From Rhabdophis nuchalis (taxonomy: Eukaryota; Chordata; Lepidosauria; Squamata; Natricidae), in NCBI GenBank assembly GCA_039707465.1, contig CM077644.1, positions 144,058,962 through 144,122,961 on the forward strand: 64,000 nucleotides of DNA. Reading direction: 5' to 3'. Below are positions 7,920 through 37,388 of this stretch, in pieces. A model generated the notes under the pieces. The model saw only the letters and a program-made list of their open reading frames with translations. It was not told the origin of the DNA and did not search any database. Made by a program: the position numbers and the translations under genes. Within the stretch, counting starts at the first letter, position 1. The number at the start of each line of letters is the position of its first letter.

Positions 7920-8697
7920 CCATATTTTTCGGCGTATAAGACGCACCTTTTTTCCTCTAAAAAGAAGCTGAAAATCTGTATACATCGAATACAGCATTTT
8001 TTGCCTCCTGAAAACCCGCCCCGTCACCAAAATGGACGCACGCATACCCTTATGGAGGCTTTCAGAGAGCTCCTGGGGGCTGGGGAGGGCAGAAATGAGC
8101 AAAAACAGGGTGTTTTTGCCCCCCCCCCAACTCCCAGCAGCACTCTATAAGCCTCCATAAGGCTATGCATGCTATTTTGTGACCAGAAAATGGGCTGTTT
8201 TCATGAACAAAATGGGCCATTTTTCCTCGTTTTGGGGCCCCCCACCCCCCAAGGAGCACTCTACAAGCCCCCCAAGGCTATTCATGCCTTTTATTTGAAA
8301 GAAACGGGCCCATTTTTGCAAAAAATGGGTCGTTTGGGGGAGGTTTGCACAGTGCAAAAAGGTTTTTTTCCCCCTTTTGGAAAGCTGTTTAGTGATTGAT
8401 GAGAATTACGTTGGTCAGGTACTGTGCCTGCAGAAACAAAGATTTGTTCCAAAGGTGGTCAGTGATTTCCTTCTCCAGCACATGGGTAAATACACCTGGA
8501 AACATCTACCTACCTACCTACTCTCTCTCTCTCTCCCTACCTATCTACTGTATCTCTCTCTTTCTCTCTCTTTCTCTCTGTATCCCTCTACCTACCTACC
8601 TATCTACACTCTCTCTCCCTACCTACCTACTGTATTTCTCTCTCTCCCCCCTCTAGCTACCTACCTACTCTCTCTCCTCCCCTACCTATCTACTGTA

Positions 8698-8734
<37 letters not shown>

Positions 8735-9056
8735 TTCTCTATCCCTCTCCCTAGTTATCTGTCTACACACACTCTTTGCCTACTTACCTACCTGCTGTAT
8801 TTCTCTCTCTCTTTCTCTCCCCCTATCCCTTTATCTATCTACCTACCTACCTAACTACACATTCTGTCTCCCTACCTACCTACTGTAGTTCTCTCTCTCT
8901 TCCCCCTACCTACCTACCCTCTCTCCCCCCCTACCTACTGTATTTCTCTCTCTTTCTCTCCCTCTCTATCTACCTACCTACTTTTTTTAAAAAAATTGCC
9001 TCTTCCAAACCTGGGTGTCTTATACTCCAGTGCGTCTTATACTCCGAAAAATACTG
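7920..9056 (+). mobile_element. TA-flanked MITE (GTATAAGACGCACC family), long copy
   Basis: Flanked by TA on both sides. The left end CCATATTTTTCGGCG and the reverse of the right end CAGTATTTTTCGGAG form terminal inverted repeats, continuing into GTATAAGACGCACC; part of that motif recurs just inside the end. No transposase frame. The 3' half is a CTAC/CTCT composite microsatellite. A TA duplication fits Tc1/mariner-type transposition. Copies at 23460-23828 and 29140-30013. Confidence 0.88.
8502..8985 (+). repeat. Composite (CTAC)n/(CT)n minisatellite inside the MITE
   Basis: Alternating blocks of CTACCTACC and CTCTCTCT, joined repeatedly by CTACTGTATTTCTCTC. The irregular 40-90 bp higher-order period is mirrored in the reversed MITE copy at 29217-29625. 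Confidence 0.9.
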
Positions 9057-17104: not shown

Positions 17105-18990
17105 TAGATCTACACGGTCTTGTTCTTTTCACCCTCACCCAAATGACAAAAATGATGTTGCAGTTGAAGCTCTTCCTATTTTGAGTGTGTGTGATATCAC
17201 AGGGCATGTTAAAAAATAGTGGGGCTTTTATTGCAATACCATGCTGCTGCTTTCAGTACTTTGGCCCCCTTGTTCTCCCATAGACACCAATGAAATCAAT
17301 GCAAAAGAGCAATGTGCAAAAATGTTGGACTATGGACTCACAATTATTGAGGTCTGTTAGCTGTTGCCATTCTATCAAATTCCCATGCTGAATTGTGAAC
17401 TTTTCCCAGTTTGCATACCTTTACAAGACCTTTCAAAACAAAACCCATCACATTAAAAAAAAAAGATGTTGGCAGAGATTTTCTAGGGTATTATATACAT
17501 TGTGCGGTTTTACTGATCTGGCAAAGAGCCTTCCTTGGGCATGACCTCAAAAAGCAACCACAAATTCAATGCAGATGCCAGGGTGCTTCAAATTGCTTTT
17601 CTGCAATTCAAATATATCAGGATGGCAACTTCATTCACTCACAGGGAGGCTCCGAAGACCACCATGCCTTCTGATCAATAGAGCAAGGATCATCTTTACA
17701 TCGTGGCCTTGCGTACTCAGCAAGAAGAAAATTTATATTTCAGGTGTAAAACCCACTTCTAATCTGTTTAACTGCTTCAGAAACCAGAAGCAATTACACC
17801 TAATGGAAGTTACACGTCTCCATTAAGATTCATGTCAAGCAACTACGGATAGATTTTTCCTTCATAAAGCTCTAGCCCCTGGGAGCAGTAGCACAGGGGA
17901 CACCCAGGAGAGAGAGTGGAAGACACTCTAACAAAAACCATTCGTAAGCACCACCGAGAAATATTTCTTGGAGTAACAAAATCGCAGAGTTGGAAGGGTC
18001 TTATAGTTTAGATTGAATCTAAAGAAACTTCTCCATTGAAACATTAGAAATTAATGCAGCCAATTTATTTTTCACAGCTTAATTCTCCCACAATACTAAG
18101 ACCAAATGTACACCCTTTTATACTTTTATACATCCTGCTTCTTTCCCAAAAGCTCATAGCTCAATAAGTAGGGCTACCCCTCCTCCCTCTTATAACAACT
18201 TTGCACAGTGTCTTAAAGAAAGAAGGTCCTCCCTATAACATTTGCACAAGCACCTCTGAAGTACTACACAAAAGCTCTTTTGTTTCTTGAATTGCCTACT
18301 GCTGTTTTTACAATGAGGCCTTGTTAAGAAGCCACCATTCAGCTACCCAGTGTAAATTCTTGTATGACTTTTCCAGATATGTGCTGACCTACAAAACAAA
18401 CACCACTCTAGATTGGATGAGAAGCAGGAATATGGCAGATTCATCTCTTTCACATCCATCCAGTCTTAATCTGGTTTGAGCCTTCTTCCCGGCCAATTTT
18501 GATTAAAAAAAATATATATATAGTTTTTAGCAACAATAATAAAAATTCCTGGGAGAGTTTTTACTTCCCAACAAATTTGGCCAACAACATGAATTGCAAC
18601 AAGCCCCTCTGTAGGATCATCAGTTCTCCTGCTTTTGCACAGAGATTTCGGCAATTTGATTTGTCTTCTGTCTCTCGCAGTCTGTTATTATTTTGCTTTT
18701 TTCTGATCTAAAAGTTCAAAATTTCACCCACTGATACATATTGCCAGATCAGTAACATTTTCAAAACAGGTTCAAGAGTCTGACATCTATGAAGATCTTA
18801 AGGAAAAGTATTTGTTAACTCATTGAAGACCATGTCATCTGGAACATTCTCTACCCAGAAGTAAAAATATCCTTAATAGACTGTGGGAATTCAGTAGACA
18901 TAATATCCTTTGACATCTGTAAAATATTGGACTATGTATCTTATGATATGCCGATTGTCAAGGTAGTTAAATGTGGCTGGATAGCATGAC
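17105..18990. other. Intronic sequence without recognised features
   Basis: Unique-looking. Short AT runs near 18510 and 18996. No element ends recognised. Confidence 0.4.
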
Positions 18991-19243
18991 AGTTAAATAT
19001 ATATATATAGCTAGCCATACCCTTACTGGGATTTGAACATAACACACATATAACGTAACACACATATAAAAAAATTACACAACGGAACTCATGGCTTTCT
19101 GTCTAGATGGTCTCTGGTGATGAGCCGAAAGGCAGAAAAGGAAACAATATGTTTCCTCCCTTAATTGGGGCCCTAACAGGGTGTTGTGGAACAATTATAT
19201 ATACTTATCCTCCTGTCTCAGCTGAGCAGGAACAGAACCTGGC

Positions 19244-19298
19244 TGGCTTATCGGCTAAGGCTCTCGCCTGGCATGGAATACAGCCCCGGTTCGAATCC
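19244..19298 (+). promoter_or_regulatory. Internal pol III-type promoter (A and B boxes), unit 1
   Basis: TGGCTTATCGG at 19244 is A-box-like and GGTTCGAATCC at 19288 is a perfect B box. The same pair recurs at 19496/19540, 19824/19868 and 20158/20202, always 44 bp apart, the usual tRNA spacing. Later units have GGTTCAAATCC. Confidence 0.75.
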
Positions 19299-19310
19299 CA
19301 GTAAGGGTAT

Positions 19311-19357
19311 GGCTAGCTGATGAGAGCTAAAAAGCTCGAAATAGATCTATCCTAGTC
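19311..19357 (+). ncRNA. Hammerhead ribozyme, unit 1 (complete fold)
   Basis: Stem I GGCTAG pairs with CTAGTC (six pairs, one G·U). Core CTGATGA at 19317-19323; stem II GAGCT, loop AAAA, AGCTC (five pairs); GAAA at 19338-19341; stem III TAG, loop AT, CTA, plus the A-U core pair; cleavage triplet ATC with predicted cleavage after 19351. All invariant core bases of a type I hammerhead are present. The very short stem III suggests weak monomer and stronger dimer cleavage. Confidence 0.88.
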
Positions 19358-19558
19358 TCCCTGACTTATTTATTGATCAGCTCAAAAACGTAACACACAC
19401 ACACACACACACATATATATTAAGGGAGGAAGCATACTGCTCTCCTTTTCAGCCTTTTCTGCCTCCTGTCTCAGCTGATCAGGAAGAGAACCTGGTGGCC
19501 TAATTGGTAAGGCTCCTGCCTAGCATGCAATACAGCCCCGGTTCAAATCCCAGTAAGG

Positions 19559-19605
19559 GTATGGCTGATGAGAGCTAAAAAGCTCGAAATAGATCTATAC
19601 TAGTC
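19559..19605 (+). ncRNA. Hammerhead ribozyme, unit 2 (stem I damaged)
   Basis: Core CTGATGA at 19565-19571, perfect stem II GAGCT/AGCTC, GAAA, stem III and triplet ATA are intact. Four bases (CTAG) of the 5' side of stem I are deleted, so cleavage is probably impaired. Confidence 0.75.
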
Positions 19606-19890
19606 TCCCTGACTTATTTATTGATCAGCTAAAAAATGTAACACACATATAAAAAAATTACACAACGGAACTCATAGCTTTCTGTCTAGATGGTCTCTGG
19701 TGATGAGCCGAAAGGCAGAAAAGGAGAGCAGTATGCTTCCTCCCTTAATTGGGGCTTAACAGGGTGTTGTGACACAAGTATATACTTATCCTCCTGTCTC
19801 AGCTGATCAGGAAGAGAACCTGGTGGCCTAATTGGTAAGGCTCCTGCCTAGCATGAAATACAACCCCGGTTCAAATCCCAGTAAGGGTAT

Positions 19891-19937
19891 GGCTAGCTGA
19901 TGAGAGCTAAAAAGCTTGAAATAGATCTATACTAATC
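19891..19937 (+). ncRNA. Hammerhead ribozyme, unit 3
   Basis: Core CTGATGA at 19897-19903. Stem II GAGCT/AGCTT has a terminal G·U pair. Stem III is intact and the triplet is ATA, with predicted cleavage after 19931. Stem I has one A·C mismatch. Likely weaker than unit 1. Confidence 0.8.
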
Positions 19938-20224
19938 TCCCTGACTTATTTATTGATCAGCTCAAAAAGTAACACACATATTTAAAAAAAATGACACAAC
20001 GGAACTCATGGCTTTCTGTCTAGATGGTCTCTGGTGATGAGCCGAAAGGCAGAAAAGGAGAGCAGTATGCTTCCTCCCTTAATTGGGGCTTAACAGGGTG
20101 TTGTGACACAAGTATATACTTATCCTCCTGTCTCAGCTGATCAGGAAGAGAACCTGGTGGCCTAATTGGTAAGGCTCCTGCCTAGCATGAAATACAACCC
20201 CGGTTCAAATCCCAGTAAGGGTAT

Positions 20225-20271
20225 GGCTAGCTGATGAGAGCTAAAAAGCTTGAAATAGATCTATACTAATC
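20225..20271 (+). ncRNA. Hammerhead ribozyme, unit 4
   Basis: Same sequence as unit 3, exactly 334 bp further on; core at 20231-20237 and predicted cleavage after 20265. Cleavage at both sites would release a 334-nt monomer. Confidence 0.8.
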
Positions 20272-20472
20272 TCCCTGACTTATTTATTGATCAGCTCAAA
20301 AAGTAACACACATATTTAAAAAAAATGACACAACGGAACTCATGCCTTCTGTCTAGATGGTCTCTGGTGATGAGCCGAAAGGCAGTAAAGGAAACAGTAT
20401 GTCTCCTCCCTTAATTGGGGCACACACACATACATACATACATACATATTTGATTTGACAGTTGTATAAAAT

Positions 20473-20728
20473 AGGGGTCCCCAACCCCTGAGCCGTGGCC
20501 ACTACTGGGCCATGAGCCGTATGGAACCGGGCCATGGAAATGGGGGGCGAACACATGCACATGTGCATTCTCACTTGCACAAGCACACTCCATTTGTGTG
20601 AGCAACTTGCACACATGCTTGCTGCTCATGCAAATGGAGCTGCACACATGCACACTTGCCTCTGCTTGCACAGAACCATACTCCCCTTCCCTCTGGTCTG
20701 CAAAGCTGGAAACGATTGGCAACTCTAG
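20473..20728 (+). mobile_element. Short hAT-type element with perfect 8-bp target duplication
   Basis: TATAAAAT flanks both ends. Starts AGGGGTCCCCAACCCC; the right end GGCAACTCTAG is eroded. The interior is rich in CACATG/CATGCACA. Non-coding. Confidence 0.85.
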
Positions 20729-29139: not shown

Positions 29140-30013
29140 CCGTATTTTTCAGAGTATAAGACGCACCAGAGAATAAGACGCACCAAAGTTTTGAAGAGGC
29201 AATTTTTTATAAAAAAAAGTAGGTAGGTAGATAGAGAGAGAGAGAGGGAGAAAAAAACCGGAGTAGGTAAGGAGAGAGGGGGAGTAGTTAGGTAGGTAAG
29301 TAGGTAGATAAAGGGATACATATATAGAGAGAAATAGAGAGAGAGAGAAATGCAGTAGATAGGTAGGAAGAGAGAGTGTGTGTAGGTAGTTAGGTAGGTA
29401 GAGGGATAGAGAGAGAGAAATAGAAAGATAGAGAGAAATACAGTAGATAGGTAGGGAAAGAGAGAGAGTAGGTAGGTTGGTAGGTGGATGGATAGAGAGA
29501 GAGAGAGAAATAGAGAGAGAAATACAGTAGGTAGGTATGGAGAGAGAGAGTAGGTAGGTAGGTAGATAAAGGGATAAAGAGAGAGAGAAATAGAGAGATA
29601 AAGAATTACAGTGGGTAGGTAGTTGTTTCTGCTGGCACAGCACTTGATCAGTGTAATTCTCATCAAACAGTTAAAGAGCTTTCCAAAAGAAAAAAAAAGT
29701 TTTTGCACTCTGCAAACCTCCCCAAAACAGTCTGTTTTTCGCAAAAACGAAAAAAGTGCATGCATAGCCTTATGAATGCTTATATATGCGGCTGGAGGGC
29801 AAAAAACAACCTGTTTTTTGCACATTTCTGCCCTCCCCAGCCCCCAGGAGCGCTCTGCAAAGCCTCCATAAGGGTATGCGCGTGGCCATTTTGGTGAAGG
29901 GGTGGGGCTTCAGGAGGCAAAAAAAATGCTGTATTCGGTGTATAAGACGCACCCAGATTTTCAGCCTCTTTTTGAGGAAAAAAAAGGTGCATCTTATACT
30001 CCGAAAAATAGGG
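29140..30013 (-). mobile_element. TA-flanked MITE (GTATAAGACGCACC family), reversed copy
   Basis: TA on both sides. CCGTATTTTTCAGAG starts it and CCGAAAAATAGGG ends it. The internal order is the mirror of 7920-9056, including the minisatellite (29217-29625) and the linker around AATTCTCATCAAACAG. Confidence 0.88.
29217..29625 (-). repeat. Composite (GTAG)n/(GA)n minisatellite inside the MITE
   Basis: GGTAGGTAG blocks alternating with GAGAGAGA and AAATACAGTAG junctions, the reverse of the array at 8502-8985. It creates a spurious 234-codon open frame. Confidence 0.9.
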
Positions 30014-32790: not shown

Positions 32791-33009
32791 CCCTCCTCCC
32801 TCATGCTATTTCTTAAGACTTTTGTCCCATCTATTTCTTTCTTTTCCTATCTCTGCCTCTCATTTCCACTATCTGATCCTTAAATTTTTCTCAATACTTG
32901 TCAATTTTAGTTAATTCCTGTGGACGTTTATGGAGATTCTAAATGATCCAGGTCATGGTTGTCCCAAAGGTGCTTTTTCAAAAAGCAACTGGAGTTTGGT
33001 TTTTCTTGA

Positions 33010-33047
33010 AGACATTTCTTTTCTCATTCAAGAAGCTTCTTCAGTTC
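33010..33047 (-). ncRNA. Hammerhead ribozyme-like core, left arm
   Basis: Minus strand: CTGAAGA (plus 33038-33044), GAAA (plus 33015-33018), then TGTC and TTC. Stem II GCTTCT/AGAAAA has two mismatches relative to the right arm, so this copy is decaying. Confidence 0.5.
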
Positions 33048-33072
33048 TGACAGTTCTTCAGCAATTCAGTCA

Positions 33073-33110
33073 GAACTGAAGAAGCTTCTTGAATGAGAAG
33101 TGAAACATCT
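33073..33110 (+). ncRNA. Hammerhead ribozyme-like core, right arm
   Basis: CTGAAGA at 33076-33082 fits the core CTGANGA. Stem II GCTTCT/AGAAGT gives six pairs including one G·U. GAAA at 33102-33105 is followed by CATC as the minimal stem III and triplet. GAA before the core can pair with TTC after it. Confidence 0.62.
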
Positions 33111-33175
33111 TCAAGAAAAAAATAAACTCCAGTTGCCTTTTGAACCAGCACCTTTGGAATAATTCCCGTGGATAT

Positions 33176-36529: not shown

Positions 36530-36690
36530 TATCAGGGATACTGGATAGCTCAAGGCATAGAGAAGCCTGTCTCATATGCTGGAAAGCACCAGTTCAAATC
36601 CCAGTAGAAGGAGTATGGCCAGCTGAAGAAGGCTAATAAGCCTGAAATGGATCCATCCTGGTCTCTTTATTTTCAGCCCTTAAAATTCTA
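36530..36690 (+). mobile_element. tRNA-derived hammerhead SINE, diverged single copy
   Basis: A-box-like TAGCTCAAGGC at 36546 and B-box-like AGTTCAAATCC at 36591, 45 bp apart, then a hammerhead and the tail CTTTATTTTCAGCCC. Clearly homologous to the 19-20 kb units but a different subfamily. Confidence 0.82.
36617..36663 (+). ncRNA. Hammerhead ribozyme, diverged copy (complete fold)
   Basis: Stem I GGCCAG with CTGGTC (six pairs); core CTGAAGA at 36623-36629; stem II AGGCT, loop AATA, AGCCT; GAAA at 36644-36647; stem III TGG, loop AT, CCA; triplet ATC with predicted cleavage after 36657. Compared with 19311-19357, four base pairs changed in a compensated way across all three stems, strong evidence that the fold was selected. 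Confidence 0.88.
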
Positions 36691-36699
36691 ACATATATA

Positions 36700-36812
36700 T
36701 TAAGTCCCAATTAAGGGAGGAAGCATACTGCTTTCCTTTTCTGCCTTTCGGCTCATCACCAGAGACCATCTAGTCTCCCTGATTTATTTATTGATCAGCT
36801 CAAAAACGTAAC
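36700..36812 (-). repeat. Reversed linker of the hammerhead repeat plus a forward tail
   Basis: AATTAAGGGAGGAAGCATAC to ACCATCTAG is the reverse of the array linker. From 36773, TCTCCCTGATTTATTTATTG to GTAAC is the forward tail that normally follows the ribozyme. The two are joined at CTAG. Confidence 0.8.
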
Positions 36813-36836
36813 ACATACACACACACACACATGCAT

Positions 36837-36970
<134 letters not shown>

Positions 36971-37388
36971 CATTTGTGCTGATGGTTTCCTGCCTGGAAG
37001 GCTCCTAGGGTGGAGTGAAAGGCAAAATGGGTAGCAGTATGCTTCCTCTCTCCCATATTTGGGTATACCAGGTGTAACAAGAGTTTGTTCAAAACCACTA
37101 ATCTCTGAAAGTACTGCACCGATCGCTTCAAAGGAACACAACGTTCCTTTGAAATACAACACCAATGATATATATAGATTGTGTAGATGTCATACCTGTG
37201 CCAGGTACACGCAACGGAAATGTAAAAAAATTGTAAAAAAGGTAGGTAGATGGATACAGAGAGAGCAGTGGGCCACAGGTATTATGTCATCCTTTATGAC
37301 ATACTCTGAGGGAGAAATACAGTAGGTAGGTAGGTTGGGGGTTATAAGGTGGTTGTGTGTACGTGTTTGTGCAGGTGTAGATCTACAC

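What the first reader, a model, noticed from the sequence alone, without database searches (positions are those of the whole stretch)
19009..20420. tRNA-promoter repeat carrying hammerhead ribozymes in a tandem array
Four successive units pair A-box/B-box sequences (44 bp apart) with a 47-nt hammerhead 12 nt downstream. All invariant core bases, three stems and an NUH triplet are visible in unit 1. Sm-alpha SINEs of schistosomes have this promoter-plus-ribozyme design, and newt satellite 2 and animal retrozymes have similar tandem 300-bp-class units. I know of no described squamate family of this kind, but absence from the literature was not checked. Transcripts could self-cleave to unit-length RNAs that may circularise.
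Basis: partly seen in the sequence, partly recalled or inferred. Interest (0 to 1): 0.95.

Follow-up and report, generated by a model that had tools for sequence, protein, structure and literature searches.

The report
Ribozyme-bearing short jumping element family
The repeat is one cluster of copies from a large family of short jumping elements that carry a tRNA-like promoter and an RNA that should cut itself, and the way the copies end suggests they are spread by a Penelope-like retrotransposon of the same genome.

Summary
Four hammerhead (HHR) cores (19317, 19565, 19897, 20231) each follow A/B boxes 45 nt apart; unit 1 (19311-19357) is a complete type I HHR. Rfam gives no gathering-level hit, but HH9 matches unit 1 at E=1.1e-5. 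The "array" is at least two nested insertions; only unit 1 is fully intact. Genome-wide, 20,965 sites match an intact-core pattern, reversed control 0. Stems covary. B boxes sit correctly in 88 of 104 copies, A plus B in 72. A young 346-bp subfamily forms 99-100% identical arrays. In 78 of 119 blocks the 3' end falls at two fixed sites; these abut microsatellites, and some copies are inverted tail to tail. Penelope-like elements (PLEs) here end alike, and 13 of 30 PLE loci carry the HHR pattern, about 1 expected. Best reading: a Pol III-type, HHR-bearing non-autonomous retroelement, designed like schistosome Sm-alpha, mobilised by PLEs from circular or multimeric RNA. Transcription, self-cleavage and circles are inferred. 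"Squamate" was not tested; an HH9 locus fits an amniote.

The parts
19009..19038 (-). Inverted 30-bp fragment of the tRNA-like 3' part and HHR start, at an (AT)n tract
   Evidence: 96.7-100% inverted matches to 19289-19318, 19869-19898 and 20203-20232
19068..19155 (+). Segment E of insertion 1; holds the covarying stem-loop at 19092-19145
   Evidence: Segment BLAST; model R2, 84.2 bits
19156..19235 (+). Segment A (head) of insertion 1; holds the second 3'-end site
19236..19307 (+). tRNA-like part, unit 1: A box from 19244, B box 19289-19297
   Evidence: no Rfam tRNA hit for this unit
19311..19357 (+). Unit 1 hammerhead, type I, complete; predicted cut between 19351 and 19352
   Evidence: HH9 E=1.1e-5; R1 79.1 bits (this sequence is one of the rows R1 was built from)
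19357..19421 (+). Tail of insertion 1 (to 19399), ending ...GTAACACACAC, then (AC)n(AT)n
19429..19457 (-). Inverted piece of segment E between the two insertions
19489..19559 (+). tRNA-like part, unit 2
   Evidence: RF00005 20.7 bits, E=0.29 over 4227 families
19559..19605 (+). Unit 2 hammerhead remnant, 4 nt of stem I deleted
   Evidence: R1 61.1 bits; alignments
19651..19739 (+). Segment E between units 2 and 3 (stem-loop 19675-19728)
19817..19887 (+). tRNA-like part, unit 3
   Evidence: RF00005 16 bits
19891..19937 (+). Unit 3 hammerhead: core intact, one stem I mismatch, AUA at the cut
   Evidence: R1 72.3 bits
20151..20221 (+). tRNA-like part, unit 4
   Evidence: RF00005 16 bits
20225..20271 (+). 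Unit 4 hammerhead, same sequence as unit 3
   Evidence: R1 72.3 bits
20315..20421 (+). Segment E (stem-loop 20342-20395) and first 16 nt of segment A; the array ends at an AC/ATAC microsatellite
36585..36832 (+). Second, divergent copy; complete hammerhead 36617-36663 with compensatory stem changes; part of segment E inverted (36720-36773)

Best explanation
The finding is a cluster of copies of a high-copy, non-autonomous retroelement. Its unit of about 330-346 nt consists of segment E (a conserved stem-loop), segment A (head), a tRNA-like part with A and B boxes, a type I hammerhead and an AC-rich tail. Proposed cycle: (1) Pol III starts at the A/B boxes and, with no T4 run in the sense strand of most units, reads through tandem units (inferred). 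(2) The hammerhead cuts the multimer into units, which host ligase may close to circles (inferred from the covarying ribozyme and from published animal retrozymes). (3) A PLE enzyme of the same genome primes reverse transcription on AT- or AC-rich target DNA at two internal sites of that circular or multimeric RNA, from both target strands, giving partial tandem copies, two fixed 3' ends, ragged 5' ends and tail-to-tail inversions. The pattern of copy ends is shown; the PLE as the agent is inferred.
For: HHR: in 65 distinct copies 23 cells have compensatory double changes (shuffled mean 3.6, 0 of 500 as high; 6 or fewer at every slide) in 6 pairs (2 of 500 as high). In 80 copies chosen by core bases and >=34/47 identity to one of two family sequences, 71 double-changed cells against a shuffled maximum of 31; stem Ib, four pairs, 34 against 22. 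In the first 100 genome pattern hits, three pairs left free by the pattern are paired in 95, 99 and 100 (shuffled maxima 91, 84, 83). Promoter: B box in 88 of 104 copies, A box too in 72; chance B-box rate 11 of 9125; no T4 run in 12 of 14 units, 1.19 runs expected. Mobility: 99-100% identical 346-bp units on many contigs. PLE link: 3' ends at two sites in 78 of 119 blocks; microsatellite beside 30 of 44 and 19 of 34 of these, 6 of 41 other 3' ends, 2 of 117 5' starts, 50 of 5000 window positions; PLE tails also end at two sites, with microsatellites at 16 of 25 and 14 of 20; 23 of 78 ends have an inverted partner within 150 nt. 13 of 30 PLE loci hold the pattern, 18 hits where 1.12 are expected; 18 of 30 have an R1 match at E<0.001. 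An anole PLE is reported to start reverse transcription at two adjacent internal sites, to prefer AT-rich DNA and to cut and extend both strands (PMC11167929).
Against: No RNA data. Rfam tRNA and HHR scores are below gathering, and in L048, L073 and L084 the young subfamily has no tRNA or HHR match at E<=1. Folding energies of two HHRs are not unusual (z -1.68 and +0.50). Copy ends do not cluster at the ribozyme cut, and for the anole PLE its own HHR was reported unnecessary for insertion in vitro, so copies give no direct trace of cleavage. The PLE bodies tested lack the element's stem-loop, and the HHR-like core I see by eye at the PLE ORF start has no Rfam HHR match at E<=10. Clustering could reflect a shared preference for microsatellites; no non-PLE control loci were fetched. 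The 41 element loci were picked by similarity to the window's unit, the 30 PLE loci by RT score, and two pairs of the latter overlap.
Confidence: 0.75

Rival explanations
1. Tandem satellite DNA with a fossil hammerhead, amplified by unequal crossing-over or DNA circles; no RNA step needed.
For: A block of 21 consecutive near-identical units (C2:147112829-147120189) looks satellite-like and could have grown by crossing-over after insertion.
Against: Copies on many contigs, two fixed 3' ends, ragged 5' ends and microsatellite junctions; stems covary.
Confidence: 0.1
2. The element is a tRNA-derived SINE mobilised by a LINE (such as CR1, L2 or BovB) through a shared 3' tail; PLE proximity is coincidence.
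For: tRNA-like heads and simple-repeat 3' ends are common in LINE-mobilised SINEs (general knowledge, no call).
Against: Two internal 3' ends, partial tandem copies and tail-to-tail inversions match PLE copies of this genome, and PLE loci are enriched for the element. LINE 3' ends and LINE loci were not examined.
Confidence: 0.1
3. The element is a piece (UTR or pseudo-LTR) of a PLE itself.
For: PLEs are reported to carry an HHR at the ORF start and to be tandem (PMC11167929); HHR copies lie within about 1.5 kb of the RT in 18 of 30 PLE loci.
Against: In 39 PLE loci the element's segments appear as separate blocks and many loci show none (that BLAST misses the diverged young subfamily). The stem-loop model hit no PLE body in the 14 PLE loci tried; its hits in L078, L080 and L082 fall in element copies.
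Confidence: 0.05

Closest known systems
Sm-alpha / Sj-alpha SINE-like elements of Schistosoma
   Same: tRNA-derived element with a type I HHR, copy number put above 10,000 (passages: PMC2770079; PMC8490949; PMC4918200 section 10)
   Different: Different host phylum; sequences were not compared. Here the copy ends and PLE co-location also point to a mobilising enzyme
Metazoan non-LTR retrozymes (cnidarian, mussel, axolotl, newt)
   Same: Type I HHR, tandem units of about 170-400 nt, in axolotl 330-353 with a short helix III, PLEs present; PLEs were proposed there as the likely mobilisers (PMC7229834 abstract, sections 15 and 17)
   Different: A 2020 review says they seem to lack promoters and show no motif naming their partner (PMC7761336 section 9); here A/B boxes and a PLE-like pattern of copy ends are seen
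Penelope-like elements with hammerheads (Poseidon PAc of Anolis)
   Same: Two internal reverse-transcription start sites, AT-rich targets, both strands extended, tandem copies, HHR (PMC11167929)
   Different: PLEs code RT and GIY-YIG; the element codes neither
Amniote intronic hammerhead HH9 (RF02275)
   Same: Type I HHR; HH9 hits the element at E=1.1e-5 and model R1 hits the genome's own HH9 locus at E=1.4e-5
   Different: Only one locus passed the HH9 cut-off among 58 candidates scored; the element is a high-copy repeat

Membership tests
Type I hammerhead ribozyme | CUGANGA...GAAA core, three stems, NUH, open stem I | tested here: met
   Unit 1 and 36617-36663; 49 of 100 full-length family rows complete in core, NUH and all 14 pairs
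Type I hammerhead ribozyme | Rfam gathering score | tested here: not met
   0 hits in the window; HH9 31.9 bits against 52
Type I hammerhead ribozyme | Self-cleavage | not testable with these tools
   Needs in vitro transcription
Metazoan retrozyme | Tandem non-coding units of 150-400 nt with type I HHR, dispersed at high copy | tested here: met
Metazoan retrozyme | Linear and circular unit-length RNA in tissue | not testable with these tools
   No RNA data
tRNA-derived SINE | A and B boxes at tRNA spacing | tested here: met
   72 of 104 copies have both, 44-46 nt apart
tRNA-derived SINE | Recognisable tRNA homology | tested here: inconclusive
   RF00005 20.7, 16 and 16 bits, gathering 29; no match at E<=1 in L048, L073, L084; ARAGORN none
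tRNA-derived SINE | Target-site duplications | not tested
   Junctions lie in microsatellites, where they cannot be told apart
Sm-alpha family | Sequence homology to Sm-alpha | not tested
   No Sm-alpha sequence was fetched; the likeness is of design only
Penelope-like element | RT plus GIY-YIG reading frame | tested here: not met
   A 330-346-nt unit cannot hold one. For comparison the PLE frame of L075 has RVT_1 E=1.8e-16 and GIY-YIG E=0.0017, 19 bits against a cut-off of 22.6
PLE-mobilised element | Same pattern of copy ends as the PLEs of the genome | tested here: met
   the enzymatic link itself is untested

The most novel reading that the evidence does not exclude
This is a PLE-dependent SINE, the first as far as the searches made here show: a Pol III-transcribed, self-cleaving RNA that a Penelope-like enzyme reverse-transcribes from circular RNA at two internal start sites, still or recently active in an amniote. 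It would name both the promoter and the partner that animal retrozymes have been said to lack.
Probability: 0.5. Interest if true: 0.85.

Novelty: new variant of a known kind. Interest (0 to 1): 0.72.

Why it matters
A 2020 review left two points about animal retrozymes open: how they are transcribed and which autonomous element moves them (PMC7761336 section 9); PLEs had been suggested on co-occurrence (PMC7229834 discussion). This family offers a candidate answer to both in one genome, with near-identical young units and PLEs with open frames on which each step can be tested. It also gives a high-copy relative of the HH9-type intronic hammerheads of amniotes, whose descent from retroelements has been proposed (PMC6155905 passages).

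Tried and rejected
A second hammerhead in segment E (GUGAUGA-GCC-GAAA-GGC-A-GAAA) was considered and dropped: its core bases are not kept in other subfamilies; what is kept is a covarying stem-loop. That stem-loop was sought in PLE bodies and not found. The GIY-YIG Pfam search scored 150 of 1267 candidates and returned one match, which I read by eye as an SLX1-like exon, so PLEs were found with an RT query. Clustering of copy ends at the ribozyme cut was looked for and not seen. ARAGORN found no tRNA in the window. MicroRNA family matches in five loci were set aside as inverted-repeat or simple-repeat matches. A random-region control was drawn up but never requested; the genome-wide pattern count served instead. 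Exact genome counts of two complete 47-nt variants were asked for and never answered. The H17 line printed read a wrong column; one search replaces it.

Full report
Observation. The four cores, A/B boxes and spacings are in the sequence as described, with small corrections: A and B boxes are 45 nt apart start to start, and unit 2 has lost four bases of stem I. The window-wide Rfam scan at gathering threshold finds nothing. At E<=10 over 18900-20500, HH9 hits unit 1 at 1.1e-5 and units 2-4 at 0.013-0.015; the tRNA model hits units 2-4 at 20.7, 16 and 16 bits and unit 1 not at all. A strict HHR descriptor finds two sites in the window, 19317 and 36623, and none in 60 Markov-simulated windows.

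Composition of the stretch. I split the unit into segments E, A (head), B (tRNA-like), C (HHR) and D (tail). Unit 1 belongs to one insertion ending in AACACACAC, (AC)n and (AT)n, followed by an inverted scrap of E; units 2-4 are a tandem run ending at position 16 of A in an AC/ATAC microsatellite. So it is a nest of at least two insertions, and only unit 1 has a complete ribozyme.

Family. The window lies in an unnamed 1.92-Gb assembly that can be searched. A 334-bp unit query gave 113 matches from 40 scored of 2592 candidates. An intact-core pattern matches 20,965 sites, 10,520 and 10,445 by strand, with 0 and 0 for the reversed control, about one per 91 kb. A subfamily with a 346-bp unit occurs as 99-100% identical copies on many contigs, including 21 consecutive units at C2:147112829-147120189 (173 matches, 40 of 412 candidates scored). 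An HH9 search, with 58 of 145,076 candidates scored, gave one match over the cut-off (88.7 bits) and one below it, 36.8 bits, which is a copy of the element. HH9-type hammerheads are reported as conserved in amniotes (PMC6155905 passages), so the host is probably an amniote; squamate was not tested.

Ribozyme. nhmmer found 124 HHR rows in 41 loci plus the window. After dropping the rows of L001 and L003, which repeat the window, 116 were left, 100 of them full length: 67 had an intact core, 49 were complete in core, NUH and all 14 pairs, and H17 was A 68, C 28, T 3, G 1. Of 66 distinct rows one could not be mapped back and was left out; with the 36617 copy, alignment A3 has 66 rows, 65 distinct. 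It gave 96.3% paired cells, 23 cells and 6 pairs with double changes (0 and 2 of 500 shuffles as high), and 6 or fewer cells at every slide. A second set, all core matches in the loci held (117, 89 distinct) that are at least 34/47 identical to one of two family sequences (80), gave 71 double-changed cells against a shuffled maximum of 31. Four pairs of an outer stem Ib, beyond a mostly constant UAU/U internal loop (UAU in 68 of 80), gave 34 against 22, 84.7% paired against a shuffled mean of 78.2%; a fifth candidate pair does not hold and was not counted. The first 100 genome hits, in contig order and including some tandem neighbours, are paired at the three free pairs in 95, 99 and 100 cases (shuffled means 84.9, 74.9, 75.5). 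Related copies share history, so shuffles overstate significance; repeated double changes across subfamilies are the stronger point. Folding energies are unremarkable for two HHRs (z -1.68, +0.50) and for the window monomer (z -0.49); the young monomer is more stable than most shuffles (z -1.90, 3 of 100 as stable). Loss of G12 in 20 of 100 rows and G-U at the base of stem II in 18 would fit decay of a CpG; that is inference.

Promoter. Of 104 family HHRs with an intact core and 110 nt upstream (identical copies not merged), 88 have a B box 24-31 nt before the core and 72 also have an A box 44-46 nt before that; the same B-box test hits 11 of 9125 window positions. Of 14 distinct units bounded by two intact cores, 12 have no T4 run on the sense strand (1.19 expected, mean chance of none 0.29) and 11 have three or more A4 runs. 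That would let Pol III read through several units. The tRNA of origin was not settled; the young subfamily keeps the boxes by eye but has no tRNA match at E<=1.

How copies end. Mapping blocks of the element in 39 loci and the window gives 3' ends mainly at two narrow sites, the AC-rich tail (about unit position 332) and the head near GACACAAGTATATA (about 138), while 5' starts are scattered (116 blocks, looser cut-off: 44 and 34 of 119). Microsatellites adjoin 30 of 44 and 19 of 34 of these ends, 6 of 41 other 3' ends and 2 of 117 starts; 50 of 5000 window positions qualify. At 23 of 78 such ends an oppositely oriented block (21 element, 2 PLE) lies within 150 nt; 55 have none. Blocks longer than one unit number 47 of 116, longer than two units 9, and ends do not pile up at the ribozyme cut. 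So the copied RNA was usually not a linear self-cut monomer; circles and uncut multimers both fit.

The PLE partner. An RT-motif query finds 150 PLE reverse transcriptases (150 scored of 2393 candidates), none of those listed with a stop inside the match, some in tandem: at C3 the period is 2972 bp with a 1011-codon frame, stop to stop. The frame read has RVT_1 (E=1.8e-16) and a sub-cut-off GIY-YIG match (E=0.0017). By eye a hammerhead-like core sits at its ORF start, as described for the anole PLE; Rfam gives no HHR match there at E<=10. PLE tails in this genome end mainly at two sites 33 nt apart, 22 and 17 of 71 blocks, again at AT/AC microsatellites in 16 of 25 and 14 of 20. The HHR pattern occurs 18 times in 30 PLE loci (102,150 bases, 1.12 expected), in 13 of 30 loci, and 6 times in nine larger PLE regions (0.74 expected, 4 of 9). 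The 30 loci are the best RT matches, not a random set; two pairs of them overlap, and two lie inside the nine larger regions. PLE-tail pieces occur in 8 of the 41 element loci and not in the window. A shared liking for microsatellites could produce such clustering, and no LINE control was fetched. A covarying stem-loop of segment E (20 rows kept of 33 representatives, 13 dropped by eye as truncated, shifted or unrelated; 15 double-changed cells against a mean of 5.2, 0 of 500; but pairs 28 of 500 and pair types 354 of 500) is not shared with the PLE bodies.

Literature. Seen: PMC7229834 (abstract, sections 15 and 17, passages), PMC7761336 (section 9, passages), PMC11167929 (passages and part 1 of 2 of section 3), PMC4918200 (section 10, passages); passages only of PMC6155905, PMC8490949, PMC2770079 and PMC6050309. 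PMC4209133, on HHRs in PLEs, is not held. Retrozyme with squamate gave 0 papers; hammerhead with lizard, retrotransposon and ribozyme gave one, the anole PLE. Most subscription papers, Repbase and Dfam were not available, so the family may be listed there under another name.

Verdict. Hammerhead-bearing, tRNA-promoter-type retroelement family: well supported by sequence. Mobilisation by PLEs: probable. Self-cleavage, Pol III use, circles: inferred. It is a new variant of the retrozyme/Sm-alpha kind, of interest mainly because it makes the promoter and partner questions testable.

Noticed in passing
window 32955-33160: Inverted repeat whose two arms both read CTGAAGAAGCTTCTTGAATGAGAA followed within a few bases by GAAA, another hammerhead-like core, apparently unrelated to the element.
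   Followed up: no
L043 1513-1565 (C1:378970325-378970406): A strong HH9 match, 88.7 bits, probably the genome's own amniote-type intronic hammerhead.
   Followed up: partly
L075 (C3:7433800-7443700): Head-to-tail PLE copies, period 2972 bp, 95.7% identity at that lag over the locus, with long open frames.
   Followed up: partly
segment E, e.g. window 19092-19145: A covarying stem-loop of unknown role in segment E, upstream of the head 3'-end site.
   Followed up: partly
window 36983-37035: Weak extra match to that stem-loop (19.8 bits, E=0.026), perhaps a relic of another copy.
   Followed up: no
window 8505-8950 and 29326-29622: Two minisatellites with similar units on opposite strands (TCTACCTACC-type and its complement).
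   Followed up: no
G000:C1:1458511-1459058: Five hammerhead cores in about 550 bases, largely alternating in orientation, with the same variants repeated 229 bases apart, suggesting a locally duplicated inverted pair (listing).
   Followed up: no
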